Shown here piece after piece: positions 6,822 to 33,211 of a DNA stretch of 64,000 bases. The translations under genes and the position numbers were made by a program. Origin of the DNA: Natronosalvus vescus (GTDB taxonomy: Archaea; Halobacteriota; Halobacteria; Halobacteriales; Natrialbaceae); contig NZ_CP099546.1 in assembly GCF_023973145.1 (NCBI RefSeq), forward strand, positions 2,046,001 through 2,110,000, given 5' to 3'. The stretch's first letter is position 1. Each line of letters begins with the position of its first letter. The notes beneath the pieces are model-generated. The model did no database searches, was not told the DNA's origin, and saw only the letters and a program-made list of their open reading frames with translations.

Positions 6822-7679
6822 ATGGCTCGAGAGAGTATGAACAATCGTAGGGACGATCATCGGGCGGCCATTCCATCACTCGATGGTGCCTTCTCTCGAG
6901 ATACCGTCTCGATGGATCTGACGATGTGCGGCCTCCTTGTCGACAAGGCAGAGGAGATGGCGCGCCTCTACGCGACACATCGAGACTGGACGACTGTAGA
7001 GGATAGATGGTTCGACGAGCGCCGTGATGGTCGAAGCACTCGAGGCAGCTCGCGCAAAGTCTATCGCGTCTTGAGTTCACGCTTCAAAACTGCTGATCGT
7101 AAACTGCCTGCGATTACGCAACTCCCGTCAGTCTTTAAACAGTGTGAAACCACACGCGATAAAGCACAGGTTCTGTACTTCTATCTCGTCGAAGAGGATC
7201 CGCTGGTTCAGTATGCTATTCACACATATATTAACCGACTCCTCGAAGACGGAATCGAGGCACTCCAGTTCGATCAAGAATCCATCGAGGCAATTCTCAA
7301 CGGCTTCAGCTACGCTGATGGGGGCGAATTTGACTACGCTGCGTCAACGACAGTTCGATGGGGCGAAGGGTTTCGCGGAGTCCTCCGTGAGATTGGCGTA
7401 ATTGAATCCCAACAAGCACTCGGTGGTCAGGTTCCCACCATCGGTACAATCCCACTCTTAGTCGCCTCAGGATATTCGTGGGAGCAAGATGGTGAAGAGT
7501 GGCTCACACAGCCACTGGGATGGCTCTATCTCTTCCAGCAGCACCCATACTGGGAGTCATTGGCCGAACGACTCAGTCAACATCCAAGTTGGGACGCGAG
7601 CGGGCTTCATGGTGAAATCAAGTTGCAGCCTGTTGGTGATACGTACGGATGGGCAGACGTGTCGGAGGTGGAGAAATGA
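6822..7679 (+). CDS. brxA: BREX protein BrxA (DUF1819-like)
   Basis: A 285-residue protein from the ATG at 6822; an in-frame GTG at 6813 is possible. The middle part, RDKAQVLYFYLVEEDPL followed by helices, resembles the DUF1819/BrxA family of small DNA-binding all-helical BREX proteins, which are usually about 200 residues; this one has an N-terminal extension. It is the first gene of the cluster, and its stop overlaps the next start (ATGA). A dedicated promoter probably lies in 6682-6821, but the TATA candidate there is weak. Assignment rests on partial motif likeness plus strong context. Confidence 0.75.
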   Translation: MARESMNNRRDDHRAAIPSLDGAFSRDTVSMDLTMCGLLVDKAEEMARLYATHRDWTTVEDRWFDERRDGRSTRGSSRKVYRVLSSRFKTADRKLPAITQLPSVFKQCETTRDKAQVLYFYLVEEDPLVQYAIHTYINRLLEDGIEALQFDQESIEAILNGFSYADGGEFDYAASTTVRWGEGFRGVLREIGVIESQQALGGQVPTIGTIPLLVASGYSWEQDGEEWLTQPLGWLYLFQQHPYWESLAERLSQHPSWDASGLHGEIKLQPVGDTYGWADVSEVEK

Positions 7680-10600
7680 GGAACGATGAGTGGTTCGCCG
7701 CCAATATTGGGGCTACGTTCGAAGAGTCTATCCGAATTGACCGGGAGGATGATGAACGCGACCACCGATTGGAGTCGATCCAGACCTACCACATTACCGA
7801 TGAGGCTGAAGACTTCCTGGAGGACATTTTCTCTCGTCTGCTCGGTCGATCCGAGGATCTCCGTTCGGGAGCGAACTACTGGCTCTACGGCTATTACGGA
7901 AGTGGGAAGAGTCACCTCCTTACCGTCCTTCGGGGGCTGATGGATAGCGAGTGGAGCCACCAGCAAGACGCGCTCTGGAGTCAGTTGGCAGACAGCCGTG
8001 ATTTGCCCACACTGGAGGCGACGTGGGACACGATCCATACAGACTACGACGTTATTCCGATCTCGGTAAACCTACTGAAATACCAGGGGCAGAAGCAACG
8101 TAGCTTCAGCGAGATCGTCCTCCGTGCCGCCCATACCTCGGATCGACTGACTGGGGTCGAAGGCGGTTTCTCCTCACAACTCGAGGTGGCGTTCTTCGAA
8201 GATTGGTATCGGACAACCGATTCGTGGAATGATCGAACCACGCACACGCGCACTGCCCTCGAGGGAATCGTCGACGACCCTGAAGCCTATAGCTGGCAAG
8301 ATGTTCAGCGCTACAGCGCCCTCGCTGACGTGGTTCTGCCGACATTATTCGAAGCCGAAACCGGGACGGTGGATGGACTCGATGATCTGACGCCATCCGA
8401 CCTTGATCCGGAAGCGATGGTGGAACGACTCGAGGAGTTACGACAGGAGCGAGAACGTGAGCAAGAACAGCCGGTTAAACTCGTCTTGCTCCTCGACGAA
8501 GTGAGCCTCTTCATCGGGACGGACTTCGATCGGTTGACTGAACTGCAGACCCTGGCTGAGAGTGTTGACGAAATCGGAGACGGCAACATTCAGCTTGTTG
8601 CAACTGCGCAGGCCAAGATTGAGGACGTACAACCCCAGTTCGCCGCACAGGGGGCCGACTTCAGTATCGTCAAAGATCGCTTTCCCCACCGCTTCGGCCT
8701 TCCGAGTCGCCACGTGGGCGAGATTTCGACTCAGCGATTGTTGAAGAAGACGGATGTCGGTGAACAGGAGACCGAGCAACTCCTCGAGCGAGCAAGTAAC
8801 GATCCCGATACATTGCTCGTATACTCTGGGATCGAGCAGAATACCGAACCTCCACTCAACACGATCGACCACGACCTTCTCATCGATTTCTATCCATTCC
8901 TTCCCTACCAACCAGCGTTGTTCCTGGAAGTCCTCTCAAACCTCCGGCAAAAGGCCCACGATCCCGCGAAGTCAATCTTCTCGGGGACGGCACGCGCAAT
9001 CTTAGCACTTGTTCACGGCCTTCTCCAGACGTGGTTCCAAAAGGGTGAAGAGGCACACGTCATCTCCTTAGTTGACTTTTACAATCTGATCGAACCGGAA
9101 CTCGAGGACATCACGCCACGAGATGTCGAAGTCGTCTCCGAAATAGAGGAGAAATACGAAGACGGCGACTTAGAGGCGATCGATGTGTCGGTTACAAAGG
9201 CGGTATTACTCCTTCAACACATCCCGGGGACGATCCCACTGACGGAGCGGAATATCGCTGTCGCCATCCTGACCGACCTAGATGGGCCGACACAGTTCCA
9301 GATGGAGAATCGTGTCGAAGAGTCGCTCCACCGGGTTCGGAAATTCATTCGTCCAACCCACGACGACACCGGCCCACGATATACCTTTGCGAACCAAGAG
9401 GAACGCGAGATATACGAGTCGACCGAGGAACGCCTCGCCAACCCGGAGTGGGATTCGATCATTGATGCCGTCGACCACTATCTGTGGGACGACATCGTGC
9501 GCGAACTTCCACTCCCAACATCTGCAACGTACGGAGAGACGACAGATGAGTATCCAGTTCGCTACGAGTTTACTCTCGACGGCCTCGAGCTTAAGACGGC
9601 AGTAGAGACGGATGACGCACTCGAGATACCAGTCGCCATCGAGGGAATTGTCCCGACAGCCGGGGATTTTGACTACGATGGCCATCCACTCGAGTGGACG
9701 GTTGGGGAGGATGGCCTCGACGACCTCCGTGATAGCCTCATCGAGTGGTGGGCTCTCAGAGCAGCTGTGGGGGATCACGAGCCACCACGATCCGTTAAAC
9801 GCGACCTCGCGGATCGAGCAAGCCGCGTCCAAAGCAAGGTCACCGGGGCACTCACCAGTGGCACGCACACTGTCAAGGATCGAACGGACATTCGAGGCCT
9901 CTCAACCGCAGTTGAGGAAGTTGTCTCCGTTCGCTATCCTGACGACTTCCATCCAAAGATGTTGCAAATCAACGAAGGGCACCTTCAGGAACTTCAGCGA
10001 CTCACGGCTCAAGACCCACTCCCCGAGTGGGCGCGACAGATCGAAGTTGCAACAGAAGATCCTGAAACCCACGGTGGATCCATCCAGAACAATGTTCGGG
10101 CGTACACCGGGCAGCAACTCACCCATCGGGGTGGTAACCTCGCGATGGCGACCATCCTCGACGGCATTATCGAGCGCCAACCAATGTACAAAAACGCGAA
10201 ACCTGCGCTGTGTGCGATCATCTGGGGACTCTGCCGGAAGGGCGACTTCCTACCGGTCGATGAGACTGGTGCCTCCATCGAGTTGGATGCCGTCATTGAT
10301 CTAACGGCGGTGACAACAACACGGCTGAAAATTAGCGGTGGTGGGGACATCCGAGGAATCCTCGCAAGCGGTGGATTCATCGATAGTACAGAAACCGTTC
10401 CTGATGGGGTTGTCAGACTGCAAAATGCGAACGACACGCTTGCGGGCCGCCTGGGAAGTCTCTCCGAAGACGTAGAGTTAGTCGCAGAGGGAGACATCGA
10501 GACCAACGCTGTTCGTGATCTACTGGACGCCTTCACGGAGGGACTCGAAACACGAACACAGCAAGCTGTCGAGCGACGCAATGCCGTTAAATCTCGCGAC

Positions 10601-11356
10601 ACGGATTGGGAACAGACAGTCGAAGCGACAAACACCGCTCGTGAGTGGTATGAAGAGGTCGCTGAAGTCTGGGAGTTGCGGTTGCCTGCACTCGTCCAAC
10701 TCGATGCGCAACTCGTCGTCTCCCAACAGTCGTTCGAGTGGCTAACTGATGAATGCGAAACGGCCTCTCAGCAACTCCGAGATGAACTCCGCCAATTCGA
10801 CGATACATGGTGGACACACGATGGCTGGGACAGGTTCAATGACGTGCAAACGCTCTCGCCCTCGATTGATGGCGCACTTGAATCCGCGTGGAGTGACTTC
10901 CAAGCAGCAACAGACGTTGACTCGCTCGTTGCTGACCTCCGTGAGCATGAATGGGTTCGCTCCGTCGGCCAGTACGAAGCCAATATTCGGCCAGCTTTCC
11001 AAAACCAGTATCTGGCCCCCCTTCAGGCCACTGTTGACTGGTTCGAGACCATCTCCGATGCTCTCGATACGGTAACAAGCGGGCTGACGACGACGGACGT
11101 AGGCGACGTTATTCGGGCAACTAGTTCGATCACCGATACTCGACCGCTTCTGGAAGTCACTGGTTGTGAGGTAAGTGAACTGCAACCGCTCTTTGAAGAC
11201 CTCCAGACTATCGTTGGCGAGCGGTCGCTGTCTGAAGTGACCATGATTGGAGTTCTCCCCTCCGATCGGGCTTCGATCGATAGCGAACTCGAGTGGTTGG
11301 TTGACCAGCACGAACTCAATATCGAGCAAACTGAGACGGGGGTGATCATTCGATGA
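7676..11356 (+). CDS. brxC: BREX ATPase BrxC, first copy
   Basis: A 1226-residue P-loop ATPase. Walker A is GYYGSGKS at about residues 72-79 and Walker B LVLLLDEVSLF at about 270-280, both in the N-terminal third. A long, mostly helical C-terminal region follows, as in the BrxC/PglY family of large AAA-type ATPases. BrxC is essential for BREX defence and methylation in studied systems. The start chosen is the ATG overlapping the brxA stop; an upstream in-frame start at 7649 would lie inside brxA. The stop overlaps the brxB start. Together with the copy at 11949 it gives the two-BrxC layout reported for type 5 BREX. Confidence 0.88.
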   Translation: MRNDEWFAANIGATFEESIRIDREDDERDHRLESIQTYHITDEAEDFLEDIFSRLLGRSEDLRSGANYWLYGYYGSGKSHLLTVLRGLMDSEWSHQQDALWSQLADSRDLPTLEATWDTIHTDYDVIPISVNLLKYQGQKQRSFSEIVLRAAHTSDRLTGVEGGFSSQLEVAFFEDWYRTTDSWNDRTTHTRTALEGIVDDPEAYSWQDVQRYSALADVVLPTLFEAETGTVDGLDDLTPSDLDPEAMVERLEELRQEREREQEQPVKLVLLLDEVSLFIGTDFDRLTELQTLAESVDEIGDGNIQLVATAQAKIEDVQPQFAAQGADFSIVKDRFPHRFGLPSRHVGEISTQRLLKKTDVGEQETEQLLERASNDPDTLLVYSGIEQNTEPPLNTIDHDLLIDFYPFLPYQPALFLEVLSNLRQKAHDPAKSIFSGTARAILALVHGLLQTWFQKGEEAHVISLVDFYNLIEPELEDITPRDVEVVSEIEEKYEDGDLEAIDVSVTKAVLLLQHIPGTIPLTERNIAVAILTDLDGPTQFQMENRVEESLHRVRKFIRPTHDDTGPRYTFANQEEREIYESTEERLANPEWDSIIDAVDHYLWDDIVRELPLPTSATYGETTDEYPVRYEFTLDGLELKTAVETDDALEIPVAIEGIVPTAGDFDYDGHPLEWTVGEDGLDDLRDSLIEWWALRAAVGDHEPPRSVKRDLADRASRVQSKVTGALTSGTHTVKDRTDIRGLSTAVEEVVSVRYPDDFHPKMLQINEGHLQELQRLTAQDPLPEWARQIEVATEDPETHGGSIQNNVRAYTGQQLTHRGGNLAMATILDGIIERQPMYKNAKPALCAIIWGLCRKGDFLPVDETGASIELDAVIDLTAVTTTRLKISGGGDIRGILASGGFIDSTETVPDGVVRLQNANDTLAGRLGSLSEDVELVAEGDIETNAVRDLLDAFTEGLETRTQQAVERRNAVKSRDTDWEQTVEATNTAREWYEEVAEVWELRLPALVQLDAQLVVSQQSFEWLTDECETASQQLRDELRQFDDTWWTHDGWDRFNDVQTLSPSIDGALESAWSDFQAATDVDSLVADLREHEWVRSVGQYEANIRPAFQNQYLAPLQATVDWFETISDALDTVTSGLTTTDVGDVIRATSSITDTRPLLEVTGCEVSELQPLFEDLQTIVGERSLSEVTMIGVLPSDRASIDSELEWLVDQHELNIEQTETGVIIR

Positions 11357-11952
11357 CAAGTGACCTCTCGAATAAGAGTGCAGATCCGCTCGCCGAATTC
11401 AAGAAACGGCTCTCTCGGTTCGCAAGTGGAAGTCGAGGGATTCGGAATCCGTTCGTTATCGTCCCGGTTCAACCGAGGTACGAACTGCGTGTCGCGGATT
11501 CGTTGCTGGAGTGGGTCGAAGATCCACACGATTCAGAAGACTTCCCCGAAACCGGAACCGCCCAAGTTCTCCGACTGGACGAACTCTTCGTCGAAACGCC
11601 AGTGTTCGATCTCGCTATCGACCTTGGATCACACTCAACGCCTGAAACGATCACGGATACGATGCAAGATCGATTGGCCGAAGAACTCGTCGACGTATTG
11701 TATTCACAGATTACGGCACCCGAGGAACAACACCACGTCGTTGTACTGACCCACCTTGGGAGTTTATATCCGTTTACCCGAGCATCCGAACTTCTCGATG
11801 AACTTGACCGACGAAACGTTCAATCAACGATCGGCATCCCCTTCCCGGGGGACATAGTTGGCGGCAAACTGAATTTCTTCGGTGAGGAATCGCGCAACTA
11901 CTACCCGGCCCACCAGATCGAGGGCCGAATCGAGGAGGAGCATCTCCAATGA
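11353..11952 (+). CDS. brxB: BREX protein BrxB (DUF1788)
   Basis: A 199-residue protein typical in length for DUF1788. The hallmark stretch VVLTHLGSLYPFTRASELLD, followed by IPFPGD, GGKLNFFGE and a tyrosine pair (RNYYPAHQI), matches the BrxB family. BrxB is a small non-enzymatic component thought to take part in the BREX assembly. Here it sits between two brxC genes with ATGA overlaps on both sides, so the three products are probably made in fixed ratio. Confidence 0.88.
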   Translation: MTSDLSNKSADPLAEFKKRLSRFASGSRGIRNPFVIVPVQPRYELRVADSLLEWVEDPHDSEDFPETGTAQVLRLDELFVETPVFDLAIDLGSHSTPETITDTMQDRLAEELVDVLYSQITAPEEQHHVVVLTHLGSLYPFTRASELLDELDRRNVQSTIGIPFPGDIVGGKLNFFGEESRNYYPAHQIEGRIEEEHLQ

Positions 11953-14900
11953 GCGATACTCGAATTCACGACATCTACCAGCAGTCACCGACTCGCGAAC
12001 TCGAAGAGGTACAGAAAATTAACGCTCGTGAGCAGGCACAGAATGACGTTCGCGAGTTCTATGAGACGGAAAGTGCCCGGAACGTTCTCACTACGCTTGG
12101 CACCCTCATCGATAAATACCCACACGAGGAATCGCGTTTCCTCTATATTTCGGCGACGTTCGGTTCGGGGAAGACACACCTGCTCAAACTCGCTGGATTC
12201 GCTGCCGATACTGAGTCGGAGTATGCTGACCTTGGTGAAGAGTTAGGTAATCGATGGGCGGGCTTTCAATCGCTCAGACAGAGCATTGCGAACTCCCACG
12301 TTGATCGGCTGAAACCCGTTTTCCTCAACCTCCTCAACCGGGATGCTTCACAGGAACCACCACTTCCGTATCTCATCTACGAGGCAATCGGGCGGGAACT
12401 CGGCTATCCGACCGACCCGAACTGGCTCCTCGAGTGGGCGTGGCAACTCGACATGAACGAAGAGTGTTGGGATGCCCTGCTCGACCTCGAGTATGATGGA
12501 AAGACGTTCGCGGATGTGTACGCCGAGCGGGCGACACTACGGAGCTGGTTGTACGACGCGGTACCGACGCTCGATGACTCACCGTTCACCTCACCTGCGG
12601 AGGTGAAGCAGTCGATCGATGACGCTATCGACGAAGTCGATCCGGACGAATTCAGTCCTTCGGACTTAGTCGACCGAATCGAGCAAGCCCAGGCAGCACT
12701 GAGTACACCTGAGACGACAACTGAGTTGCTGATCGGGCTCGATGAAGTCGCGCTGTTTATCGGTGATGGCCGCCACCGATACCGTGAATTCCAGCGGACG
12801 ATGGAAGCACTCACTGAAGTGGGTGGCGGGCCGAATCCACCAATTGTTGGCACGGGTCAGTACCCAATCGAGCGTATTCACGGTGAGTTCGAGGACAGTA
12901 ACGTAACGTCGGAGTCGTGGTTCGGGAAACAAGAGCCCCTCGAGGGTGCGGATACGGAGATCATCGTCCGCAAGCGGTGGTTACAAAAAACCGGGGAGGG
13001 GAGGGATGCCGTCCAGACCGCTCTCGAGCGTGTACCTGATCTTACCCTGCACACGTACGGGGACGTTGTAGGCTCGGATCCCGACTCAGTCGAGTCGTAT
13101 CCGTTCCGAGAGTACGATCTTGCACTCCTTCGGAAGGTAATTCAGCAGTTGATGCCTCGTGGTCGGGTTACAGAGGATGAGTACGTCCAGGGACGGGCGC
13201 TCCTCATTCTCGTCCGATCACTGTTCACGCGCTTCGACTGGAGCGAGAAGTCCGTTGGCACGCTCGTCACCTGGGACGAACTATTCGACTTGCTCGTAGA
13301 GGAGACGACATACGTACCGCTCTGGGTACAGGAAATGCTGGATCGAATTGAGCAACTCCCGTCCGGAGACGACCCTGAATCGATCGATCCAGTCCGTGTT
13401 GCGAAGACCCTCTATCTCTTGAATCAGGTACGCTCGACCGTCCCATCGACCCCTGAGAACGTAGCCCGGTTGATAGGTGACTCGGCGGACGTGTCACTGG
13501 ACACGCTTGTTGATTGCGTCGAGGATGCACTCCAAAATCAGGAGTACGGACTTGTCGAACACAGATATGTCCTGGCCGAGACGAACGAACAGGGTGAGAC
13601 CGAGTATCTCCTCGTCTCTGAAGAGCAAGAAGACATTCTTGGGCGAGCGAAAGCGCATGCCCAACAGATCTCCTCACATCGTCTGTCGGCTAAACTCCAC
13701 ACCACGTTCCAGGAGGCCAGCAGTCATCTCCTCTCAGCGGGCAGTCGGCACGAGATTGACCTCGAGGGTGAACGTAACGTCCCGATCCGGTTCGAATACT
13801 CAGTTCTAGATCCGATCGAACGGGCACCAATACCGGAGTTCGACGCTGTTCGGGTTCGGCTCGTCGCTGATCATCCTAATAGGGTTGCTGATCAAGTGAA
13901 GGCGTGGCAATCAACAAACGAAGGACGTGACGGTGGTGAACACATACTCATTGCAGTATCCGTCTCGAAATCACTCGTCGACCGCCTTCGCGAGGTAATG
14001 GGAATGCAGGAGGTGCTGGACAATGAGACCGAGACACATGCAGACCTCCGAGCAGACCACCATGACGACCAGCGAGAGTTAGAATCCACCGTTCGCGAGC
14101 AGCTCGCTGACGCGGATGTATTCGGACGCACTGGAAGTGCCCGTGGTCGATATGAGACTGCCTTCACAAAACTCGTGAGCGAAACGGTACAGGCAGCCTT
14201 CGGGCAAACTCGGTATGTATTGACGAACGGTATCACAGAAGTCCCCGATTCGGAACAGATGGGTCGGTTTTTCCGTGGCGCTGACGACTGGCCACTCTCG
14301 ACCGAGGATGCCGTCATGCTGGGTGTCGATACACCCAATGGTGACTTCGGTGAGGGATGGTGCCAGGACTTCCTCGACGCATACGATACCCGTCAATCGC
14401 TACGCGCTGAAGACCTTCTCGCAGAAACCGTCCAGCGTGGCGGGAAGTATCGCGGAACGCCCAGGGAATCGATCGCCGCCCTCCTCATTACGCTTGCGAC
14501 GGCGAACAAAATCGCGCTCAAGCGTGACGATGAGTACCTGACTGACCCCAAGGCGATCGGTCGGGCTGTTAGAAACAAAACCAAGCTCGTCAACGTCACA
14601 ATTCGGTTCGAGTCGCTGGAAGGAATCGATCCCGATCAGATCCGTTCAATCGTTACAACGCTTACCGGTACGTCACCATCAGGGAGCGATCCCGACGCAT
14701 GGCTTGCTGAATTAGGCGAGTGGGCGAACGAACACAGCGTGCTGGTCAAGCGAACCTTGCGTGGCGTTCGTCGAGAGTTTGGTGACGAGGCATTGGTTGA
14801 TGCGTTGTATGAGGCACTCGAACCCGCGCTGAGCGGTGAACCACTCGCGACCGAGGACTTCGCATCGGATGAGGTCGAGAAGCAAGCCAAGCGGTTTGCC

Positions 14901-15803
14901 CACGCGACAGATTTGTTCCGCCCAGACGAATCCAGTGAGACGCTGTGGGATCGCTTTACCGACCAAACAGCGGAAATGCAGCGTCTACACTCGGGTGCTG
15001 ATATTACGGGTGAGATGCAATCGATTGTCGCCAGTGACGACGTACCGAGTTCCGAGCGGTTGCGAGCGACGTTGGATGACGCCGACGCCCATCGCCGGAC
15101 AGTCGTTCGGGAACAGTACACACGTATTATAGGTGAGATACCGGATGAAGACGAGCCAGAGCAGGTCGTCTCGAGTCTCGTCACATGGCTCTTCACACAC
15201 GATGAAAGCAGCAAAGAGATAGCAGATCAGGTATCCGTAGAGTTCGAAGGGGTACAGATCGATGAGCTGTACGCCCTCCTCGAACGAGCATGGGATGGCG
15301 ATACGTTCACCGAAGCTGAGCTTGTCGACTCATCGGTCATCGACCAAACGAAGCGGTACGCGAACGCCCGCCAGCTCCTCGCAGGTACGGCCGGTGAACC
15401 AAGTCTCTGGTCGAAACTTCGCGATGCGTCGCGGCGTCTCGAGGAGGACTACCCAAATCATCCGACGACGAAGAAGGTACAATCGACACTCGTCCGGTCA
15501 CGTCCCCCAAGCTTTGATGAAGTAGAGCAACTCCTAGAGGAGGCAAAGAATCCGTTCGAACTTTACGAGCGACTTGGAGATCTTGCTGAAGAACTACAAG
15601 CGGAGTATCCTGGTCACGAAACAACGGAAGTTGTCGTCGGGGCTGTCGAAGCAACCGAGCCACCACGAGATGAGCGACTCCTCGAACTGATTGAAGAGGC
15701 GGAACAGATACTTGAGGGGACGGGGGAACAGTTACGGCAGATCCGAGAACTGATGGGCGAATTGGAAGATGGTTCCACCGTATTGATCGAATCACTCGAA
15801 TAA
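11949..15803 (+). CDS. brxC: BREX ATPase BrxC/PglY, second copy
   Basis: A 1284-residue P-loop ATPase. Walker A is ATFGSGKTHLL at about residues 69-79 and Walker B LLIGLDEVALFIGDG at about 260-274. It shares domain order with the first copy but is clearly diverged in sequence, so this is an old paralogue pair and not a recent duplication. The C-terminal 400 residues are highly charged and rich in heptad-like Leu/Glu patterns. The gene overlaps brxB by four bases. The next same-strand gene, pglX, starts 546 bases downstream, behind an antisense lipoprotein gene. Confidence 0.88.
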   Translation: MSDTRIHDIYQQSPTRELEEVQKINAREQAQNDVREFYETESARNVLTTLGTLIDKYPHEESRFLYISATFGSGKTHLLKLAGFAADTESEYADLGEELGNRWAGFQSLRQSIANSHVDRLKPVFLNLLNRDASQEPPLPYLIYEAIGRELGYPTDPNWLLEWAWQLDMNEECWDALLDLEYDGKTFADVYAERATLRSWLYDAVPTLDDSPFTSPAEVKQSIDDAIDEVDPDEFSPSDLVDRIEQAQAALSTPETTTELLIGLDEVALFIGDGRHRYREFQRTMEALTEVGGGPNPPIVGTGQYPIERIHGEFEDSNVTSESWFGKQEPLEGADTEIIVRKRWLQKTGEGRDAVQTALERVPDLTLHTYGDVVGSDPDSVESYPFREYDLALLRKVIQQLMPRGRVTEDEYVQGRALLILVRSLFTRFDWSEKSVGTLVTWDELFDLLVEETTYVPLWVQEMLDRIEQLPSGDDPESIDPVRVAKTLYLLNQVRSTVPSTPENVARLIGDSADVSLDTLVDCVEDALQNQEYGLVEHRYVLAETNEQGETEYLLVSEEQEDILGRAKAHAQQISSHRLSAKLHTTFQEASSHLLSAGSRHEIDLEGERNVPIRFEYSVLDPIERAPIPEFDAVRVRLVADHPNRVADQVKAWQSTNEGRDGGEHILIAVSVSKSLVDRLREVMGMQEVLDNETETHADLRADHHDDQRELESTVREQLADADVFGRTGSARGRYETAFTKLVSETVQAAFGQTRYVLTNGITEVPDSEQMGRFFRGADDWPLSTEDAVMLGVDTPNGDFGEGWCQDFLDAYDTRQSLRAEDLLAETVQRGGKYRGTPRESIAALLITLATANKIALKRDDEYLTDPKAIGRAVRNKTKLVNVTIRFESLEGIDPDQIRSIVTTLTGTSPSGSDPDAWLAELGEWANEHSVLVKRTLRGVRREFGDEALVDALYEALEPALSGEPLATEDFASDEVEKQAKRFAHATDLFRPDESSETLWDRFTDQTAEMQRLHSGADITGEMQSIVASDDVPSSERLRATLDDADAHRRTVVREQYTRIIGEIPDEDEPEQVVSSLVTWLFTHDESSKEIADQVSVEFEGVQIDELYALLERAWDGDTFTEAELVDSSVIDQTKRYANARQLLAGTAGEPSLWSKLRDASRRLEEDYPNHPTTKKVQSTLVRSRPPSFDEVEQLLEEAKNPFELYERLGDLAEELQAEYPGHETTEVVVGAVEATEPPRDERLLELIEEAEQILEGTGEQLRQIRELMGELEDGSTVLIESLE

Positions 15804-24406: not shown

Positions 24407-24415
24407 GTGAGACAC

Positions 24416-25309
24416 ATGAAAACGAACGATAAGACCAACTCAAAACCAAGCAGACGAACGATCTTAGGCGCGATAGGTACCCTAACTGGATCACTTATCG
24501 CTACGGGTAGTGCTACGGGCGACGACTGTCCTGAACGGGATCCAGCAGAACGAGGACGAACTGGTTCGCTCATGTGTGGTGAACTCCCAGCGGAACACCA
24601 CGAAGGGAGTAATGAGTCCTGGTATGAGTCATCAATCACGTTCCAAAATTGCTCGTCCTGTACACGCTCTATAGACACTCGCGTCACGGACGGGCACATT
24701 CACGAGGATAAAGAAGAAGAACCGCACGAGTCTGACCAAACGAGTGTTCTCACCGATCGTCTCGAAGGGGGTGAACGGAAGACGTTCTGGTTCACAGGCA
24801 GTATCAACAATTTCGATCTTGGAGCAGCAGATATGAACGTCGCCCTCAGCCAACGTTCAGTTGAACACGCGCCAGATGTACATTGCTACCGTTTGGCTGA
24901 TGAAACGGATGATAGAACCGATTCCGATGATGAGTGCCCAGAGGGAGATCCAGCAGAGGGTGGTCGAACCGGCTCGCTCATGTGTGGTGAACTTCCAGCG
25001 GAACACCACGATGGAGGTGATGAGCCCTGGTATGAGTCGTCAATCACGTTCCAAAACTGTTCGAGTTGTACTCGGCAGATATCCGTTGGGATCAGCGGTG
25101 GACAGATTCACGAGAATAAAGACGTAGAACCGCTCGAAGACGATCAATCAAGGAGCCTGTCATATCACATTGAGGGCGGTGAACGGAAGACGTTCTGGTT
25201 CACTGGAAGTGTCGGTTACCTTGACTTATCCGAGCCTTCGGATATGAACGTCGCCATTAGCCAACGCTCTATCGAACACGCACAATCATCACGGTGCTAC
25301 CGACCCTGA
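24416..25309 (+). CDS. Tat-exported cysteine-rich protein with two tandem repeats
   Basis: A 297-residue protein from the ATG at 24416 (an upstream GTG at 24407 directly follows the previous stop). A Tat signal (SRRTILGAIG) is followed by two near-identical units of about 125 residues. Each has the pattern CPE.DPAE.GRTGSLMCGELPAEHH, then WYESSITFQNCSSC, then GGERKTFWFTG, and ends in a final Cys (HCYR or RCYR). That gives five cysteines per unit, including a CSSC pair, suggesting disulfides or a metal site outside the cell. The two units are also similar at DNA level, so the duplication is fairly recent. No family recognised. Confidence 0.65.
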   Translation: MKTNDKTNSKPSRRTILGAIGTLTGSLIATGSATGDDCPERDPAERGRTGSLMCGELPAEHHEGSNESWYESSITFQNCSSCTRSIDTRVTDGHIHEDKEEEPHESDQTSVLTDRLEGGERKTFWFTGSINNFDLGAADMNVALSQRSVEHAPDVHCYRLADETDDRTDSDDECPEGDPAEGGRTGSLMCGELPAEHHDGGDEPWYESSITFQNCSSCTRQISVGISGGQIHENKDVEPLEDDQSRSLSYHIEGGERKTFWFTGSVGYLDLSEPSDMNVAISQRSIEHAQSSRCYRP

Positions 25310-25319
25310 CACCATTGAT

Positions 25320-26672
25320 ATGACCATGAACCGCAGGAATTACCTCTCGACAGTCGGAACAACGGTCGGCCTGGGTGGATCGGTCAATTTGCGGCAAGCG
25401 TTCCTCTCAAATGGTTCACCTTCGATCAATATTACTGAGACAAACGCACCGCTTGAAGGTGGTGACCTGCTCGAAGTAATAGCTACTGTGGAAAACCAGG
25501 ATAACAGCCGACACACTTTCGACACCAGGTTATTCATCGACGAAGAGAAGGCAGTAAATGAAACGGTGTCCATCGATCCTGATGAGACTGAAGAGATTGA
25601 GTTCGAATACCGGACGTATCCAGTAATAGCTGATATTGACATTACTGTTCGCGTTGATGCTGATGGGTTTGCAGATCAAGAGTTAATCGAGCTGTCTGCT
25701 GTTGAGGAACTCCATGATGAGGATGTGAAACCCGACCTTGATCTAACGGTACAACCGGGGGCTAAAATGGTGTTCGAAGTTGATGAGACTCTCACGGACG
25801 ACCCTGATTACGGAAATACACACTGGTTCATTAACGGTGAGTACACCCATCAATCAACGGAGCCCTGGTTCCACGAGAGGCAAACCGAGCGTTATGAATA
25901 CTGGCCCCATACGTTTCAATCCAAAGGCGTCTATGATATTGCCGCTGCCGTCGACAACGATGAGCAGAACTACACCTACCAATGGGTGATCTCAGTTGAC
26001 GAAGACGGTATTGAACCCCCAACTATTGAGAATATTGGGTCAGAAACAATTGGGGATGACTCAGGGAGTAGTTACGATGTCGAAATTGAGGTCTCCAGCC
26101 CAAGCGAAGATATTGATCGCATTATTTGGTGGGACGAGGATGGATCCAGTATTGAAGCGGTGACCGAGATAAGTGGAAGCGAAGATACGGTCGCAAGATC
26201 AATACCAGGAGGATTCGCTCCAACCATCTGGGCGATTACGGAAAACAACGTGGTTACGGAAGCCAATCCATGGAGAGTAGAAACGACAGAGGATGAGCGT
26301 GACGAGCCCAGCGAAGAACGACCTGTTGAGGAACTCCGATCCGTTACAGAGTTCAGATGGCGACTAGAACGAGAGGGTATTATCGTAACCTACCTCCAGA
26401 TGGTTATTGATCAGATAAACCTCGACTATCAAACACGAGCAACCACACAAGATGAAAAATATCTCGAAATTGGAATTGTAGCATCAGCGTATGTTGATCT
26501 CGTTGCATCCGGACACGAGTCCCAATTGTTACACGTAATATTTGTAGATAATTATGGATTTGATCTAGGGGGATACTTCATCATGTCCGAATGGGCTCAA
26601 GCGTATGCTGACGGGCACATCACCGGACAAGAATTCTCCGATCTGATTCTAAGCACATTCGGGTATGAATAG
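25320..26672 (+). CDS. Exported multi-domain protein: CARDB-like, PKD-like and shared C-terminal domain
   Basis: A 450-residue protein with a Tat-like N-terminus (NRRNYLSTVG). A first beta domain of about 90 residues (ATVENQDNS ... DPDETEEIEFEY) resembles CARDB adhesion modules. A second (FQSKGVYDIAAAVDN) resembles PKD folds, and a third beta domain contains IIWWDEDG. The C-terminal domain (EIGIVASAYVDL ... EWAQAYADGHITGQEFSDLI) is paralogous to that of the protein at 23486. The gene begins 10 bases after the preceding one, so the two are probably co-transcribed. It is extracytoplasmic; role unknown. Confidence 0.65.
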   Translation: MTMNRRNYLSTVGTTVGLGGSVNLRQAFLSNGSPSINITETNAPLEGGDLLEVIATVENQDNSRHTFDTRLFIDEEKAVNETVSIDPDETEEIEFEYRTYPVIADIDITVRVDADGFADQELIELSAVEELHDEDVKPDLDLTVQPGAKMVFEVDETLTDDPDYGNTHWFINGEYTHQSTEPWFHERQTERYEYWPHTFQSKGVYDIAAAVDNDEQNYTYQWVISVDEDGIEPPTIENIGSETIGDDSGSSYDVEIEVSSPSEDIDRIIWWDEDGSSIEAVTEISGSEDTVARSIPGGFAPTIWAITENNVVTEANPWRVETTEDERDEPSEERPVEELRSVTEFRWRLEREGIIVTYLQMVIDQINLDYQTRATTQDEKYLEIGIVASAYVDLVASGHESQLLHVIFVDNYGFDLGGYFIMSEWAQAYADGHITGQEFSDLILSTFGYE

Positions 26673-26913: not shown

Positions 26914-28194
26914 TCACTTCTCCCGAACGTTTTCGACAGCTTCGGCAACGATCTTGTCAACGATCGCCGCCAGGGGTAGATGCTCTTCGAATGCGGTGGC
27001 CAGGGTGGCAAAGTAACTCTCCGGAAGCCCAGCTTGATCGACGTTGTACACCTTCTCCGTGTAGTTTTTCTTTTGTCCTTTGTTTGTAATCTCGTTCTCG
27101 TCGAGAACTGGTTTGAGTTGTTTCTGCCACCGTTCACTATTGTACAATCGGTAGAACTCATTCCGGAGTTCAACTCGAGTTGGTGAACGCAGGAGGAACG
27201 TCAACTCCCCTCGGCTGAAGGACTCTTCCTTCCGTATGAGGTGAACGAAATGCAATCGGAATCCAGTGTTCCCCTGTGTCTCTGAGTAATATCGTGTGGT
27301 TTCGAGGCCGTCATCATCTAAGTACCATCCATCTTTGAAGATGCAACCATACTTTCCGGCGTCTGGTCGCGTATGCCACTCGTCTGTCCATAGCTCGTTA
27401 TCAAGCTGGTTTTGAAACAGCTCTGGCCACTCTTCGATTGACCGTTGACGAAGCGATTCCGCAGCGCCGAGGAGGTCATCAATCTCGTCACGGTACGTAC
27501 TGAGCAATCGAACCTTCTCCTTCTGTATCGTTGTATAGTTATCATCTTCCATGTTTGACACCTGAATTATTGTTGAGAGAAATTCTCGAAGTTGACTTAC
27601 GCTACGTTCCGGATAGGTACCATGTGAGCTTCTGAGTTCGTCGTCAAATGCCTCGACGACGTGCCGCCAATACAAATCAGCGAACCTAGGTGCATTGGAG
27701 TCTGGTGTGTGTTTCTTCGAAAGAAACACGTAATGGTGGCCATCGGGAGGATAGTCGGCTTTTTCTTCGGCACCGAGATGTGCGTCAGTGACGTATCGAT
27801 AGGTCTGCTTTTCGCCCTCAGTTGCATCGACTTTCGATTCGATACATACGAACCACCGCCCTGGGACACGGATCACAATATCAAGGCGATTGTCTGCTGG
27901 TGAGGTAACCTCAGTATCGACCTTGACGAGTTCGAGATCGCGATGATAGTACTCGAGCGGGATGCCTGCTTCTCGCTGTGCCGTATCGAGAAAGCACTTG
28001 AGGAAGTCAACACCGAACCCGTGAGGTTGTGTTGGATCGAGAAAGTACGCTAAGAACGTATTCCATTTCTGTTCAGACCGTGCCGATCCGAGTATTCGTA
28101 GCGTCGATTTTGGCGGCTCCGACACCACCGGAAGGGCTTCGAGTGAAGATTGAAGCTCTCGGAATCGAACCTCCAGTTCATCGCTCATTGCCAT
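26914..28194 (-). CDS. PD-(D/E)XK nuclease superfamily protein
   Basis: A 426-residue protein. The N-terminal half carries RLDIVIRVPGRWFVCIESKV with the nuclease triad Asp105, Glu119 and Lys121. The pattern before it (NTFLAYFLDPTQPHGFG) fits the PDDEXK_4 type of nuclease-fold protein found in defence loci. The C-terminal half is unassigned. It is transcribed on the minus strand, 79 bases after the GmrSD-like gene, so the two form an operon facing away from brxHII. Probably a DNA-cleaving partner; the substrate is unknown. Confidence 0.72.
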   Translation of the reverse strand: MAMSDELEVRFRELQSSLEALPVVSEPPKSTLRILGSARSEQKWNTFLAYFLDPTQPHGFGVDFLKCFLDTAQREAGIPLEYYHRDLELVKVDTEVTSPADNRLDIVIRVPGRWFVCIESKVDATEGEKQTYRYVTDAHLGAEEKADYPPDGHHYVFLSKKHTPDSNAPRFADLYWRHVVEAFDDELRSSHGTYPERSVSQLREFLSTIIQVSNMEDDNYTTIQKEKVRLLSTYRDEIDDLLGAAESLRQRSIEEWPELFQNQLDNELWTDEWHTRPDAGKYGCIFKDGWYLDDDGLETTRYYSETQGNTGFRLHFVHLIRKEESFSRGELTFLLRSPTRVELRNEFYRLYNSERWQKQLKPVLDENEITNKGQKKNYTEKVYNVDQAGLPESYFATLATAFEEHLPLAAIVDKIVAEAVENVREK

Positions 28195-28273: not shown

Positions 28274-30100
28274 TTAGGTCTCTGTGAAGCGGGATTCTTC
28301 TGTTGACGGTTCACCAAGCACCTCGATTAGTTCCTGCTTGATGAGATCCCCCCGTGCTTGCAGGAATTTATCAAAATTCCCAATCTCGTAGTAGTCAGTG
28401 TTCTCCGGGATCAGATGCCGTTTGTAGAAAGCGTCGTCTCGAGTGGTGATCCACTGCTCAAATGGCTTATCCTGTTTGGCTTCGTTTTCGCGACCGGTGA
28501 GCAGTTGAAGATTTCCGAACTTGTCTGCATGCTCTTCGAATTGAATCGCCTTCTCAGGCTCGACACCTTGTTCAATGAGCTTTTCAGCGGTGAGTCGGTT
28601 GCTCGGGAAAATGTGATCTTGGTGGTACTGAATACTCCCAAAGTCGTGCTGTTCGTACAGGAGAGTTAACGCGAGGAACGTTCGGTTGCCTCCCTTTTCG
28701 TATTCGAGGATGTTTTCAGCAATCTCTTCATCGAATCCGACAATCTTCCCGAGTTGTGCCATCTCGGTGTTGAGGTTGTCAATCGGGAAGTTGTTCCCGT
28801 CATGGTCTCGGATAACGTCCCGAGTGCGGCGAAGAACGGTGTCTGCGCTCCCGGAAAACGTTCCATGAAGGAGTGAGGTGATCAACCATCGTTTGATGTC
28901 ACGTTTGATTTGCACCTTTGATGCTTCATCCGACTGCAGCCGTTCCGCTGTCAACCCGCTCTCTTTGAACCAGTATGCGAGTGGGATAACGGCGTTTCTG
29001 CTAAGCAATGTCTTCTGATGGATCCCAAAGTAGTTTATCAATGTCGCAGCCTCGAGTATAGAGTGCTTGATCGTTGGCCAATTCTGTTCAATTTCGGAGA
29101 CGTTTTCACGTTTGAATTGTCCGACTCGATACTGAACCGGTAGATCGGAGAGAACGAGCGAGGATTTCAGGAGGAAGTCTTTGCCATAGCTATTCGTTTT
29201 TGGGAGTTGCATGTTCAGGTGATCGACAAAGCCAGTGAGTTCCTCCCGGGCGTCGTATTCCTGCCAATTTGCTTGTGCAATCGAGAGCAGTAAATCGGAT
29301 TTTTGTAATTCCGTTCCGCCGTCGTTTGTTCGGATGAATATTTCGAGGACGCGATCGATGTTTTGCTCTTTTTCCTCGAAATACGTGATGTAGGTTTTTT
29401 CGTGGATAGCGTACCGGAGGTCGCGTAAGTTTTGCCCGACCCACCGTTCCTGTTCCGAGGTTAAATCGTACTCCTGCTCGATGCTGGAAATGTAGTCCTC
29501 CAAGTCATTTCGATCGTTGTAGTCGAGTATCGCACCGACTCGAAACCAGTGATCCTCGCCTCGGTCAACGATCTTTCCGGAGTAGGTGCTTTCCGGAAGG
29601 AACATGAATTCGTAACGTGTCTGTCGGTCGCCACCCTCTTCCAACAACTCGCTTGGGTCTGATGTGATGTTCAAGTAGAGGCGAGACCGTTTCCACGCAC
29701 TTGGGTTTCGGTACCATTTCCGATTTTGTTTGTACGTGTACGTGCCCTTGAGTCCGATATAGAACGATGAAAGCCGCTGTTGCCCATCGAGAATGAGTTT
29801 GAGATCACCTGCGCCGTCAGGAATGACCTTCGAATTTCGCGTTTGCGCGTCAGTTTCGATGTATTTTGTAGTAGTGATGTAGTTCTTGATGAACCCGTAC
29901 ATGGTGTACTCGTCACGATTGTCGTCATCCAGATCCCAGTAGAGGAACGTCCCTATCGGATAGCCCTGCAAGACCGAGTCGAATAAGTCAGTAATTTGCT
30001 CGCGTTCCCAGACGATCTCCCGCTGGATTGCGGGTAGCAGATAGTTCTCTTTCTGAATTTCCTCAACGGCCTCCTGGATCGTCGCACCCTTATCGTACAT
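28274..30100 (-). CDS. GmrSD-like nuclease (DUF262 plus DUF1524), BrxU-type
   Basis: A 608-residue protein from the ATG at 30100. A longer frame to 30448 would overlap brxHII and lacks family-like sequence. The N-terminal DUF262 shows LLPAIQREIVW, GYPIGTFLYW and the NTPase motif ILDGQQR (about residue 105), then FIRTNDGGTELQ. The C-terminal DUF1524 part has the HNH-like YHQDHIFPSNRL (about residue 494) and GNLQLLTGRENEAKQ. This is the arrangement of GmrSD type IV enzymes, which cut modified DNA. A GmrSD homologue, BrxU, is encoded in an Escherichia fergusonii BREX locus and protects against phages with modified DNA; a like role here is inferred. Confidence 0.82.
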   Translation of the reverse strand: MYDKGATIQEAVEEIQKENYLLPAIQREIVWEREQITDLFDSVLQGYPIGTFLYWDLDDDNRDEYTMYGFIKNYITTTKYIETDAQTRNSKVIPDGAGDLKLILDGQQRLSSFYIGLKGTYTYKQNRKWYRNPSAWKRSRLYLNITSDPSELLEEGGDRQTRYEFMFLPESTYSGKIVDRGEDHWFRVGAILDYNDRNDLEDYISSIEQEYDLTSEQERWVGQNLRDLRYAIHEKTYITYFEEKEQNIDRVLEIFIRTNDGGTELQKSDLLLSIAQANWQEYDAREELTGFVDHLNMQLPKTNSYGKDFLLKSSLVLSDLPVQYRVGQFKRENVSEIEQNWPTIKHSILEAATLINYFGIHQKTLLSRNAVIPLAYWFKESGLTAERLQSDEASKVQIKRDIKRWLITSLLHGTFSGSADTVLRRTRDVIRDHDGNNFPIDNLNTEMAQLGKIVGFDEEIAENILEYEKGGNRTFLALTLLYEQHDFGSIQYHQDHIFPSNRLTAEKLIEQGVEPEKAIQFEEHADKFGNLQLLTGRENEAKQDKPFEQWITTRDDAFYKRHLIPENTDYYEIGNFDKFLQARGDLIKQELIEVLGEPSTEESRFTET

Positions 30101-30286: not shown

Positions 30287-33211
30287 ATGACGAACACTAC
30301 ACGGTTCTCGCCCGGTCAACGGGTCGTTCTCAACGGTACGACTGCAGAAGTCATTTACACCCAGACCGTCGGCGATCTGGAATATCTGCGTGCGTATATC
30401 GACGGTGAGGGCATCAAAACCGTCTGTCTTGACGACGTTGACATCCATCTACATCAACAGCCGCTCGAGAACCTATCGGGACAGCACCTCGAGGCTTTTC
30501 ATCCTGGTCACGACAAAACTTCAGCTCAGTGGTTCGATCTCCAGACACAGGCGACGAAACTCAAACTCGCGCATGAACAAGGTCAGCTCCTTTCCATCTC
30601 CAGCTCGCTCGTTCGGCTCGAACCCTATCAGCTCGCCTGCGTGAATTGGGTGATGCAAAAACTTCGCCAACGGGCACTCATTGCAGATGACGTTGGTCTG
30701 GGCAAGACGATCGAGGCTGGACTCATCCTCAAAGAACTCTCCGCCCGTAATCGAGCTGATCGAATGCTCTTCGTCGTCCCTGCGCACCTGCAAAAGAAGT
30801 GGGTTCGGGATATGGAACGGTTCTTCGACATCGATCTAACGGTCGTTGATCGGACGTGGGTCGAAGCCGAACGACGCCGTCTGGGTGAAGAAGCGAATAT
30901 CTGGAATCAAGATCACCAGCAGTTAGTCACGAGTATGGCGTTTCTACGCCAAGACGAATTCCGGCCTGTCCTTCGTGATGCGTTCTGGGACGTTGTTGTC
31001 GTCGATGAAGCGCACAAAGCGTCGAAGCGGGGTGATTCACCTAGTAAAACGGCAAACACAGTCGAAACAGTGGCCGAGACATCCGACTCGTTGCTTTTGT
31101 TGAGCGCAACCCCCCATGACGGCAAAGGTGAGGCGTTTCGTTCTCTCGTGGAATACATAGATCCGTTTCTTGTCGCTGAAAACCACGACCTTTCTCCCGA
31201 GACCGTCGATCGCATTATGATTCGACGAGGGAAGGAGAGCATCTACGACGACAATGGTGATCGGGTGTTCCCTGAACGAGATGTAGGGGCCATCTCTGTC
31301 GATATGACGCACAACGAGCGCCAGTTCTACCGTGAAGTAACAGACTACGTGCAACATGTCTACAACCGGTCTGAGCAACTGAACGAGCCAGCTGTCGGGT
31401 TCGCGATGGCGCTCATGCAGAAACGACTCGTCAGCAGTGTTGGCGCGATTCATGCGACGCTGCGGCGGCGATTGACCGACCTGCTCGATGAGCAGATGGC
31501 CACAGATGAACTGTCTCCTGCGGCAGCCGCTTATTTAGCGGGTGAGGATCTCGATGAAGACGACAAGCAACGGGCTGAAGACGAAATTGCGGGCCTCTCT
31601 CTCGCCGAGACCGATGAACAACTCGAGGAAGAAATCGAGACACTCAGACGATTGGTCTCGCTCGCTGAGGGGCTTCCGGTTGACTCGAAGGCGCAAAAGG
31701 TGCGACGCTTCATTCAGCAACTCCTCGACGATGAACCCGATGAGAAACTCCTCGTGTTCACCGAATATCGGGATACCCTCGAGTATCTACTTGACCTCGT
31801 CAAAGACGAACCGTGGGCTGATGAGATACTCGTCATCCATGGCGACGTTGATAAAAGCGATCGAACGCGCATCGAGGATGAGTTCAACTACGGACAGTCA
31901 CGACTCTTGTTTGCGACCGATGCCGCTAGTGAGGGGATCGACCTCCAACACAGTTGCCACATTATGGTGAATTACGAATTGCCGTGGAATCCGAATCGAC
32001 TCGAACAGCGAATCGGTCGGATTCACCGCTACGGCCAAGACAAGGAGGTCAAGGTGTGGAACTTCCTATTCGAGGACACACGCGAAAGCGAGATTTTCGA
32101 GTTGCTCGAGGAGAAAGTCGAGGAGATTCAATCCAAACTTGGGAACACGGCTGATGTACTCGGGATGCTCGACGACGTTGATGTTGACTCTCTCATTATG
32201 GAGTCTATCCGGAACAACGATCCACCGAGTGCAACGCGGGCAGAACTTGATCAACTGTTGGACGATCGACAGCGAACGCTCGAAGAGTGGTATGAACGAA
32301 GTATGGTCGAGACTAGTACGTTCGATGCCGAAAGCCGCCAGGAAATTCAGAAGGTTGTCGATGAGTCAGAGAATATCTACGGCACTGAAGCCGATATCAA
32401 AGCGTTCTTTGAGCAAGCAGTAACGGCGTTCGGTGGGTCGATCGAGCGTCAGGGGGCAAATCTCTATCGAGCAGAGTTACCGAACGACTTTGAGGCCATG
32501 GAGAGCCAGTCGTCGTTTGGCCCTTTCACGTTCGATCGCGAGTTTGCAATGAAACACGATGGGATCTCCTATTTAGCACCCGACTCGGCTGTACTCGAAC
32601 AGCTGATGGAACAAGTCCTCACCGACGAACGAGGAACCGTCGGGGTGAAACTGCTCCCCTTTGTCGACTCACCAGGCATCACCTACAATTACCGCGTTGC
32701 GTTTGAGGATGGCACCGGTGAGGTGATACGCGAGGAGATGATTCCTGTCTTTATCGACGCAGAACAGCGAGATGCTCAACGGGTACTTGGTGAACGTGTT
32801 ATTGATGGAGATTCGATAACGGCAAAGCCAGATACAGGGAGTCTGCGAACAATCTTCGATGTTGAAGATGAGTTGCGCGATGTGGCTGATCGGTACGTGA
32901 GCGAAGAGATACGGAAAATCAAGTCCACGCTCCGCGCGCAACGCCACGAAGACATCTCCAGTGAACTCGAGAATATCGAGGCTTACGCAGAAGCTGAACG
33001 GGAGCGAATTGAATCTTTCATCGATGAGTATGAGCGGAAAGCAGAGGGCGGTTCCGATATGGGAATCGCGATTCGTGGCCAGCGTGAGCGACTGCAGAAA
33101 CTCGAAAAACGAATCCAATCGAGGCGTACCGAACTCGAACGGCGTGAACGGATTATCTCACTGGCACCGGAAGTCGAGAACTACTGCTTGGCACTTCCAA
33201 TTCAGTCATGA
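30287..33211 (+). CDS. brxHII: SNF2-type helicase BrxHII
   Basis: A 974-residue superfamily 2 helicase/translocase. ADDVGLGKTIEAG (about residues 131-143) is motif I, VVVDEAH (DEAH at 240-243) motif II and LLSATPHDG (about 270) motif III. ATDAASEGIDLQ and RIGRIHRYGQ (about 574-583) are motifs V and VI. The C-terminal 350 residues are acidic, with a long coiled-coil-like stretch near the end. SNF2-like helicases named BrxHII occur in type 3 and type 5 BREX. It lies 7.3 kb after pglZ because of inserted cargo but keeps the cluster's direction. Confidence 0.85.
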   Translation: MTNTTRFSPGQRVVLNGTTAEVIYTQTVGDLEYLRAYIDGEGIKTVCLDDVDIHLHQQPLENLSGQHLEAFHPGHDKTSAQWFDLQTQATKLKLAHEQGQLLSISSSLVRLEPYQLACVNWVMQKLRQRALIADDVGLGKTIEAGLILKELSARNRADRMLFVVPAHLQKKWVRDMERFFDIDLTVVDRTWVEAERRRLGEEANIWNQDHQQLVTSMAFLRQDEFRPVLRDAFWDVVVVDEAHKASKRGDSPSKTANTVETVAETSDSLLLLSATPHDGKGEAFRSLVEYIDPFLVAENHDLSPETVDRIMIRRGKESIYDDNGDRVFPERDVGAISVDMTHNERQFYREVTDYVQHVYNRSEQLNEPAVGFAMALMQKRLVSSVGAIHATLRRRLTDLLDEQMATDELSPAAAAYLAGEDLDEDDKQRAEDEIAGLSLAETDEQLEEEIETLRRLVSLAEGLPVDSKAQKVRRFIQQLLDDEPDEKLLVFTEYRDTLEYLLDLVKDEPWADEILVIHGDVDKSDRTRIEDEFNYGQSRLLFATDAASEGIDLQHSCHIMVNYELPWNPNRLEQRIGRIHRYGQDKEVKVWNFLFEDTRESEIFELLEEKVEEIQSKLGNTADVLGMLDDVDVDSLIMESIRNNDPPSATRAELDQLLDDRQRTLEEWYERSMVETSTFDAESRQEIQKVVDESENIYGTEADIKAFFEQAVTAFGGSIERQGANLYRAELPNDFEAMESQSSFGPFTFDREFAMKHDGISYLAPDSAVLEQLMEQVLTDERGTVGVKLLPFVDSPGITYNYRVAFEDGTGEVIREEMIPVFIDAEQRDAQRVLGERVIDGDSITAKPDTGSLRTIFDVEDELRDVADRYVSEEIRKIKSTLRAQRHEDISSELENIEAYAEAERERIESFIDEYERKAEGGSDMGIAIRGQRERLQKLEKRIQSRRTELERRERIISLAPEVENYCLALPIQS

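What the first reader, a model, noticed from the sequence alone, without database searches (positions are those of the whole stretch)
6822..33211. BREX cluster of type 5 layout with several cargo modules inside
brxA, brxC, brxB, a second brxC, pglX, pglZ and brxHII are all on the plus strand, with no brxL. This matches the haloarchaeal type 5 BREX as I recall it. Unusually, about 8 kb of extra genes sit inside: an antisense Tat lipoprotein, three membrane or exported proteins and a two-gene nuclease operon. Either the cluster has been a landing site, or these are lineage-specific helpers.
Basis: partly seen in the sequence, partly recalled or inferred. Interest (0 to 1): 0.75.

Follow-up and report, generated by a model that had tools for sequence, protein, structure and literature searches.

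The report
Archaeal BREX operon with defence cargo slots
A salt-loving archaeon carries a complete type 5 BREX antiviral operon on a mobile chromosomal island, and comparison with about 50 relatives shows that such operons take in extra defence genes at only three fixed joints, here a recurrent BREX-slot nuclease, a relative of the restriction enzyme BrxU, and three exported proteins that look like passengers.

Summary
Seven intact core genes (brxA, brxC1, brxB, brxC2, pglX, pglZ, brxHII) match type 5 BREX models, and no brxL exists in the whole genome. The cluster lies on a ~74.7-kb integrative island bounded by a 15-nt repeat at tRNA-Arg.

I collected related loci from 391 archaeal genomes. 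Cargo is confined to three junctions: brxC2-pglX, pglX-pglZ and pglZ-brxHII (92 of 127 filled). The front block brxA-C1-B-C2 is never interrupted (0 of 102 junctions). The window's 7.3-kb pglZ-brxHII insert is the largest seen at that junction.

The cargo is mixed. The PD-(D/E)XK protein is a real slot partner: all five closest orthologues lie between pglZ and brxHII. The other nuclease is a full-length homologue of BrxU (PDB 7P9K), but its nearest relatives are not at BREX. The three exported genes and the lipoprotein recur at no other BREX locus examined and look like passengers.

So "landing site" is supported, "helper" only for the nucleases, and the "two-gene nuclease operon" is two separate acquisitions. 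Embedded BREX nucleases are already published. I found no prior report of the three-slot rule, of Kiwa or CBASS modules inside type 5 BREX, or of a split Type IIG nuclease half there.

The parts
6813..7679 (+). brxA
   Evidence: PADLOC PDLC02456 BrxA 8e-134; Pfam BrxA 9.5e-4, below its cut-off
7649..11356 (+). brxC1 (BrxC/PglY ATPase, first copy)
   Evidence: PADLOC PDLC02474 E=0, 1-1223/1223
11353..11952 (+). brxB
   Evidence: Pfam PF08747 1.7e-12; PADLOC 5e-101
11949..15803 (+). brxC2 (BrxC/PglY ATPase, second copy)
   Evidence: PADLOC PDLC02473 E=0, a different model from brxC1
15827..16204 (-). cargo in the brxC2-pglX slot: 125-aa Tat lipoprotein (TRRQFAG...LLSGC)
   Evidence: signal and lipobox read from sequence; no homologue at other BREX loci; only weak matches in 81 family genomes
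16350..20642 (+). pglX (N6-adenine methyltransferase)
   Evidence: PADLOC PDLC02518 E=0; Eco57I and N6_Mtase in Pfam
20770..22965 (+). pglZ, type 5
   Evidence: NCBIfam NF033444 BREX_PglZ_5 E=0
23079..23228 (.). MITE-like 150-nt element with terminal inverted repeat AGCGTGTCATAGAATA / TATGACACGCT
   Evidence: 75% identical copy inside the interrupted pglX of another type 5 locus (L119), others in L097 and L082; single copy in own genome
23471..24406 (+). cargo: 311-aa membrane protein, small TM domain plus C-terminal alpha/beta domain
   Evidence: shares its C-terminal domain with the 450-aa protein
24407..25309 (+). cargo: 300-aa Tat-exported protein with two tandem beta-strand domains
   Evidence: 62% homologue outside BREX in G361; strands in the model, fold not assigned
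25320..26672 (+). cargo: 450-aa Tat-exported protein with the same C-terminal domain as the 311-aa protein
   Evidence: 86 of 125 family genomes hold relatives
26914..28194 (-). cargo: PDDEXK_4 nuclease (PDC-S26-like), recurrent partner of the pglZ-brxHII slot
   Evidence: Pfam PDDEXK_4 2.4e-14; PADLOC PDC-S26 6e-22; orthologues at 70-72% in the same slot
28274..30100 (-). cargo: BrxU-like GmrSD-family Type IV restriction enzyme, 608 aa
   Evidence: GmrSD_N 3e-27 and GmrSD_C 4e-7; HEC-05 8e-196; PDB 7P9K 1.4e-110
30287..33211 (+). brxHII (Swi2/Snf2 helicase)
   Evidence: PADLOC PDLC02504 BrxHII E=0
41931..41945 (.). attR core AACGGGCGCGACGGG at the 3' end of tRNA-Arg(CCG); attL copy lies 32,817 nt before window base 1
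   Evidence: exact 15-nt repeat plus partial flank identity and matching GC step
41933..42005 (-). tRNA-Arg (CCG), integration target
   Evidence: ARAGORN

Best explanation
This is an intact type 5 BREX system carried on a tRNA-targeted integrative island. The operon acts as a chassis. PglX marks host DNA, and the BrxA/B/C/PglZ/BrxHII machinery blocks unmarked viral DNA (inferred from the family). The three junctions around pglX and pglZ are tolerated insertion slots that collect accessory defence genes (shown by comparison). In the window, the pglZ-brxHII slot first held the PD-(D/E)XK nuclease, a recurrent tenant of that slot. A BrxU-like Type IV enzyme then entered between it and brxHII, and a three-gene exported cassette and a MITE entered between pglZ and it; this order is inferred from loci that hold the nuclease alone. 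Most likely function: the BrxU-like enzyme cuts virus DNA whose modified bases escape BREX, and the PD-(D/E)XK nuclease is a backup cutter acting with or downstream of BREX (both inferred). The exported genes are probably passengers.
For: Core genes intact and type 5, no BrxL. Front-block gaps of -39 to 0 nt at all 102 measurable junctions, against inserts of at least 300 bp at 35/38 brxC2-pglX, 23/40 pglX-pglZ and 34/49 pglZ-brxHII junctions (counts; gaps). Two loci (G172, G374) show the bare chassis. PDDEXK_4: the window, G134 (beside a decayed pglZ), G290, G248 (Halorubrum persicum) and Halorubrum laminariae (L261) all hold it in the slot, relatives at 70-72% identity; catalytic motifs kept. 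BrxU: full-length match to 7P9K with DGQQR and DHIFP motifs; pEFER brxU sits between brxC and pglX and works complementarily to BREX (PMC8565348). Slot content changes at least 20 times on the PglZ tree. Island ends, integrase and GC step coincide.
Against: No expression or plating data exist. Antisense cargo separates brxHII from its operon promoter, and I did not identify a new promoter for it. BrxU-like nearest relatives are not at BREX loci, so co-function in this genome rests on homology. The PDDEXK_4 substrate is unknown and no solved structure matches by sequence. The order of insertion is inferred. Loci are related by descent, so the junction counts are not independent events.
Confidence: 0.78

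Rival explanations
1. All cargo is neutral passenger DNA: the back half of the operon simply tolerates insertions, and nothing in the slots works with BREX.
For: The exported genes and lipoprotein recur at no other BREX locus examined; a MITE-like element has landed too; the BrxU-like gene's closest kin are elsewhere; the locus is on a mobile island full of other genes.
Against: Slot contents include many nucleases and known defence systems. Two nuclease families are slot-specific at high identity: 5 of 5 PDDEXK_4 and 11 of 11 Type IIG nuclease halves.
Confidence: 0.15
2. The three exported proteins and the lipoprotein are lineage-specific BREX helpers, for example surface proteins that hinder virus entry.
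For: They sit inside the operon, and two of the three share a C-terminal domain. Some other slots also hold membrane or exported proteins (143-aa four-TM family, a Tat protein in G212).
Against: No homologue at any other type 5 BREX locus examined. Relatives occur elsewhere with no BREX beside them. Folds unassigned.
Confidence: 0.08
3. The cluster is a decaying BREX whose operon has been broken by antisense insertions and no longer works.
For: brxHII is cut off from upstream transcription; a MITE and passengers have entered; a decayed relative with only a pglZ remnant exists (G134).
Against: All seven core ORFs are full length without stops and match models end to end; the nuclease motifs are intact.
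Confidence: 0.1

Closest known systems
Type 5 BREX (Goldfarb 2015 class; treated as a Type 1 subtype by Rakesh and Krishnan 2026, PMC12839542)
   Same: gene set brxA, brxC x2, brxB, pglX, pglZ, brxHII; no brxL
   Different: 7.3 kb of cargo between pglZ and brxHII, partly antisense
pEFER BREX with BrxU (Picton 2021, PMC8565348)
   Same: a GmrSD-family Type IV enzyme embedded in a BREX operon; full-length homology to PDB 7P9K
   Different: type 1 BREX on a bacterial plasmid, brxU between brxC and pglX; here an archaeal type 5 locus, antisense, between pglZ and brxHII
Auxiliary nuclease effectors in BREX (PMC12839542) and guilt-by-embedding candidates HEC/PDC (cited in PMC12988326 and PMC11411939)
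   Same: nucleases embedded in defence operons; the window enzymes match HEC-05 and, weakly, PDC-S26
   Different: I found no mention there of a three-junction rule, of Kiwa, of a split Type IIG half or of exported cassettes
TgvAB inside a type I R-M operon of Vibrio cholerae VPI-2 (PMC11411939)
   Same: GmrSD-type enzyme nested in a modification-based defence operon
   Different: a two-protein GmrSD-like system in a type I R-M; here a single-chain BrxU-like enzyme beside an unrelated PD-(D/E)XK gene

Membership tests
Type 5 BREX | brxA, brxB, two brxC/pglY, pglX, pglZ and brxHII in one locus | tested here: met
Type 5 BREX | type 5 PglZ | tested here: met
   NF033444 1080 bits, cut-off 250
Type 5 BREX | no brxL | tested here: met
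   no PF13337 match in the whole genome
Type 5 BREX | PglX methylates host DNA and unmethylated viruses are blocked | not testable with these tools
   needs long-read methylation calls and plating
BrxU / GmrSD Type IV restriction | DUF262 (DGQQR) plus DUF1524 (HNH-type DHI...N) in one chain | tested here: met
   Pfam GmrSD_N and GmrSD_C, motifs aligned, 7P9K full length
BrxU / GmrSD Type IV restriction | nucleotide-dependent cleavage of modified DNA | not testable with these tools
   biochemistry needed
PD-(D/E)XK nuclease (PDDEXK_4) | D...ExK catalytic signature and family match | tested here: met
   Pfam 2.4e-14; D...ExK aligned and kept in all six sequences
PADLOC PDC-S26 | full-length match to the model | tested here: inconclusive
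   6e-22 but only residues 34-225
tRNA-targeted integrative element | integrase near one end, direct repeat of the tRNA 3' end at both ends | tested here: met
   15-nt repeat, Phage_integrase domain in the first gene inside attL, GC step

The most novel reading that the evidence does not exclude
Type 5 BREX is a fixed-slot platform. Its translationally coupled front block is closed to insertion, while the three joints flanking pglX and pglZ are exchange sites where haloarchaea swap interchangeable effector cassettes (PD-(D/E)XK, Type IIG nuclease halves, second PglX copies, Kiwa, CBASS, BrxU), giving one sensing and marking core many killing outputs.
Probability: 0.4. Interest if true: 0.75.

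Novelty: new variant of a known kind. Interest (0 to 1): 0.58.

Why it matters
How BREX actually stops viruses is still partly open, and published work points to back-up nucleases. A slot in which unrelated nucleases replace one another, including the nuclease half that Type IIG enzymes carry fused to a PglX-like methyltransferase, gives a natural set of swaps for testing whether BREX recruits interchangeable cutters. It is also a short list for finding new archaeal antiviral genes: whatever fills these three joints.

Tried and rejected
A single-protein scan of genome contigs with PglZ gave nothing; an alignment query worked. Pfam and NCBIfam found no family for the exported proteins or the lipoprotein. 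AlphaFold models of the 300-aa protein (pLDDT 58) and of the shared C-terminal domain (pLDDT 78) gave no PDB match at E<=0.001. I considered that 22966-23470 might be the remnant of a slot gene; it holds a MITE-like element and no homologue of any slot gene was found there. Short 'GmrSD' hits at most of 31 loci were antisense brxHII caused by the over-long ORF, and were discarded. A PDDEXK-GmrSD unit was considered; only two of five close GmrSD relatives have a distant PDDEXK_4 nearby, so it was rejected. A bacterial promoter scan of the slot gave fewer sites than shuffles and says nothing for an archaeon.

Full report
**Observation.** Each matches a subtype-specific PADLOC model end to end or nearly so, with the two BrxC proteins hitting two different models. 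PglZ matches NCBIfam BREX_PglZ_5 at 1080 bits against a cut-off of 250. Pfam adds BrxB, PglX methylase, PglZ and helicase domains. BrxL is absent from the whole 3.84-Mb genome. This is type 5 BREX. Relatives found by name are all haloarchaea. One genome of the window's own genus appears to be Natronosalvus hydrolyticus (same 224,384-bp contig), so the host is probably a Natronosalvus, family Natrialbaceae (inference; lineage).

**Setting.** The low-GC region ends at tRNA-Arg(CCG) at 41933-42005. A 15-nt exact copy of the tRNA 3' end, with partly matching flanks, lies 32,817 nt before the window, where GC falls from about 0.62 to 0.54 and below. The first gene inside it has a phage-integrase domain. 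BREX therefore rides on a ~74.7-kb integrative island, which also holds Mrr-type, HSDR-type and NucS-like nuclease genes and a TIR protein.

**Survey.** PglZ was searched in 391 genomes of the class; 62 had a match. I fetched up to 20 kb on either side of pglZ for most of them and measured every junction. In the front block, brxA-brxC1 (31 loci), brxC1-brxB (35) and brxB-brxC2 (36) are always overlapping or abutting, from -39 to 0 nt (the counts exclude one locus cut off by its region edge). The back junctions are also tight when empty (about 6 nt for pglX-pglZ, -2 nt for pglZ-brxHII), yet they carry inserts of at least 300 bp in 35/38 (brxC2-pglX), 23/40 (pglX-pglZ) and 34/49 (pglZ-brxHII) loci. 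Tight spacing alone therefore does not explain why the front block stays closed. Two loci are completely bare; 36 of 38 fully measured loci hold cargo. Most named loci from a separate collection overlap this sample, and the additional ones fit the same pattern.

**What fills the slots elsewhere.** The brxC2-pglX slot holds complete Kiwa pairs (KwaA with KwaB) in six loci, a CBASS cyclase with a two-TM effector in one, NucS-like PDC-S11 nucleases, and an HTH plus DUF6036 nucleotidyltransferase pair. The pglX-pglZ slot holds OLD/TOPRIM proteins among others. The pglZ-brxHII slot holds PDDEXK_4, PDDEXK_5, a Schlafen AlbA_2 protein, a uracil-DNA glycosylase-family protein, TATA-binding proteins, second PglX copies (53-74% identical to the first, NPPY motif kept) and, in 11 loci, a 421-425 aa protein. 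All 11 close homologues of that protein in the sample lie in this slot, and its distant homologues are the N-terminal part of ~1,160-aa Type IIG methyltransferase-nucleases. It looks like the nuclease half of a Type IIG enzyme standing beside PglX. On a PglZ tree, slot content changes at least 20 times, so cassettes are swapped.

**The window's own cargo.** (a) The PD-(D/E)XK gene at 26914-28194(-) has its closest relatives (70-72%) in the same slot in G290, G248 (Halorubrum persicum), G134 (where only a pglZ remnant survives upstream) and Halorubrum laminariae, antisense in the three where strand was printed (G290, G248, G134); two further homologues at 65% and 56% are not at BREX. Catalytic residues are kept. 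(b) The gene at 28274-30100(-) is a GmrSD-family enzyme that matches the solved BrxU structure over most of its length at 1.4e-110. BrxU is embedded in a bacterial type 1 BREX locus and gives complementary protection against phages with modified DNA (PMC8565348). Its nearest kin (64-69%) are not at BREX loci, but more distant copies lie a few kb downstream of brxHII in G242 and G212. (c) The three exported genes at 23471-26672 and the small lipoprotein at 15827-16204(-) occur at no other type 5 locus. Relatives of the 300-aa and 450-aa proteins lie together on a contig with TnpB-like genes in G338, and the 300-aa protein beside ordinary chromosomal genes in G361 (gene identities there read from sequence). 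The 450-aa type is common in the family, 86 of 125 genomes. (d) A 150-nt MITE-like element follows pglZ; a 75% copy interrupts pglX in G090.

**Mechanism.** Shown: gene content, intactness, slot positions, recurrence, conserved motifs. Inferred: BREX marking and exclusion as in the family; the BrxU-like enzyme cutting modified virus DNA; the PD-(D/E)XK enzyme as a BREX-linked back-up cutter; the exported genes as passengers. brxHII is now preceded by antisense genes, so it must have its own promoter if it is expressed; this was not tested.

**Prior art.** Rakesh and Krishnan (PMC12839542) already report PD-(D/E)XK, GmrSD, OLD/TOPRIM and Schlafen effectors embedded in BREX loci, and treat type 5 as a Type 1 subtype. 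The guilt-by-embedding approach and the HEC/PDC families are cited in PMC12988326 and PMC11411939. The main text of PMC12839542 does not contain the word Kiwa, and I found no statement of a junction rule in the papers searched; supplements and most subscription papers could not be checked.

Noticed in passing
L032-L052 (G333, G375, G241, G267 twice, G089, G224, G035, G027, G078, G253), pglZ-brxHII slot: A 421-425 aa protein homologous to the N-terminal nuclease part of Type IIG enzymes fills this slot; all 11 copies at 62% identity or more in the sample lie there.
   Followed up: yes
G241, G290, G375, G031, G002, G348, brxC2-pglX slot (for example L094, L097): Adjacent KwaA and KwaB genes (Kiwa system) embedded inside the type 5 BREX operon.
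   Followed up: partly
L123 (G223), brxC2-pglX slot: CBASS-type cyclase followed by a two-TM effector inside the BREX operon.
   Followed up: partly
L039, L043, L045, L048, L056, L062, L080 (pglZ-brxHII slot): A second PglX, 53-74% identical to the first where compared (six loci) and with its NPPY motif; split into two ORFs in G016. Possibly a second methylation specificity.
   Followed up: partly
L069 and L071 (G012, G335), pglZ-brxHII slot, also brxC2-pglX and pglX-pglZ slots elsewhere: TATA-binding protein homologues (Pfam TBP 2.4e-41) inside BREX operons; a basal transcription factor as cargo is unexplained.
   Followed up: no
window 36885-38285: TIR-domain protein (TIR_2 2.2e-19) on the same island, about 3.7 kb downstream of brxHII.
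   Followed up: no
L221-L223, 31.6 kb to 28.2 kb before window base 1: 1,142-aa protein on the minus strand with a P-loop-like motif and a long run of TPR-like repeats (read from sequence), just inside the attL end.
   Followed up: no
L119 (G090) 15418-15569: MITE-like element interrupts pglX, so that BREX is probably inactivated there.
   Followed up: partly
G267, G360, G179 and Halorubrum laminariae: Some haloarchaeal genomes carry two type 5 pglZ loci.
   Followed up: no
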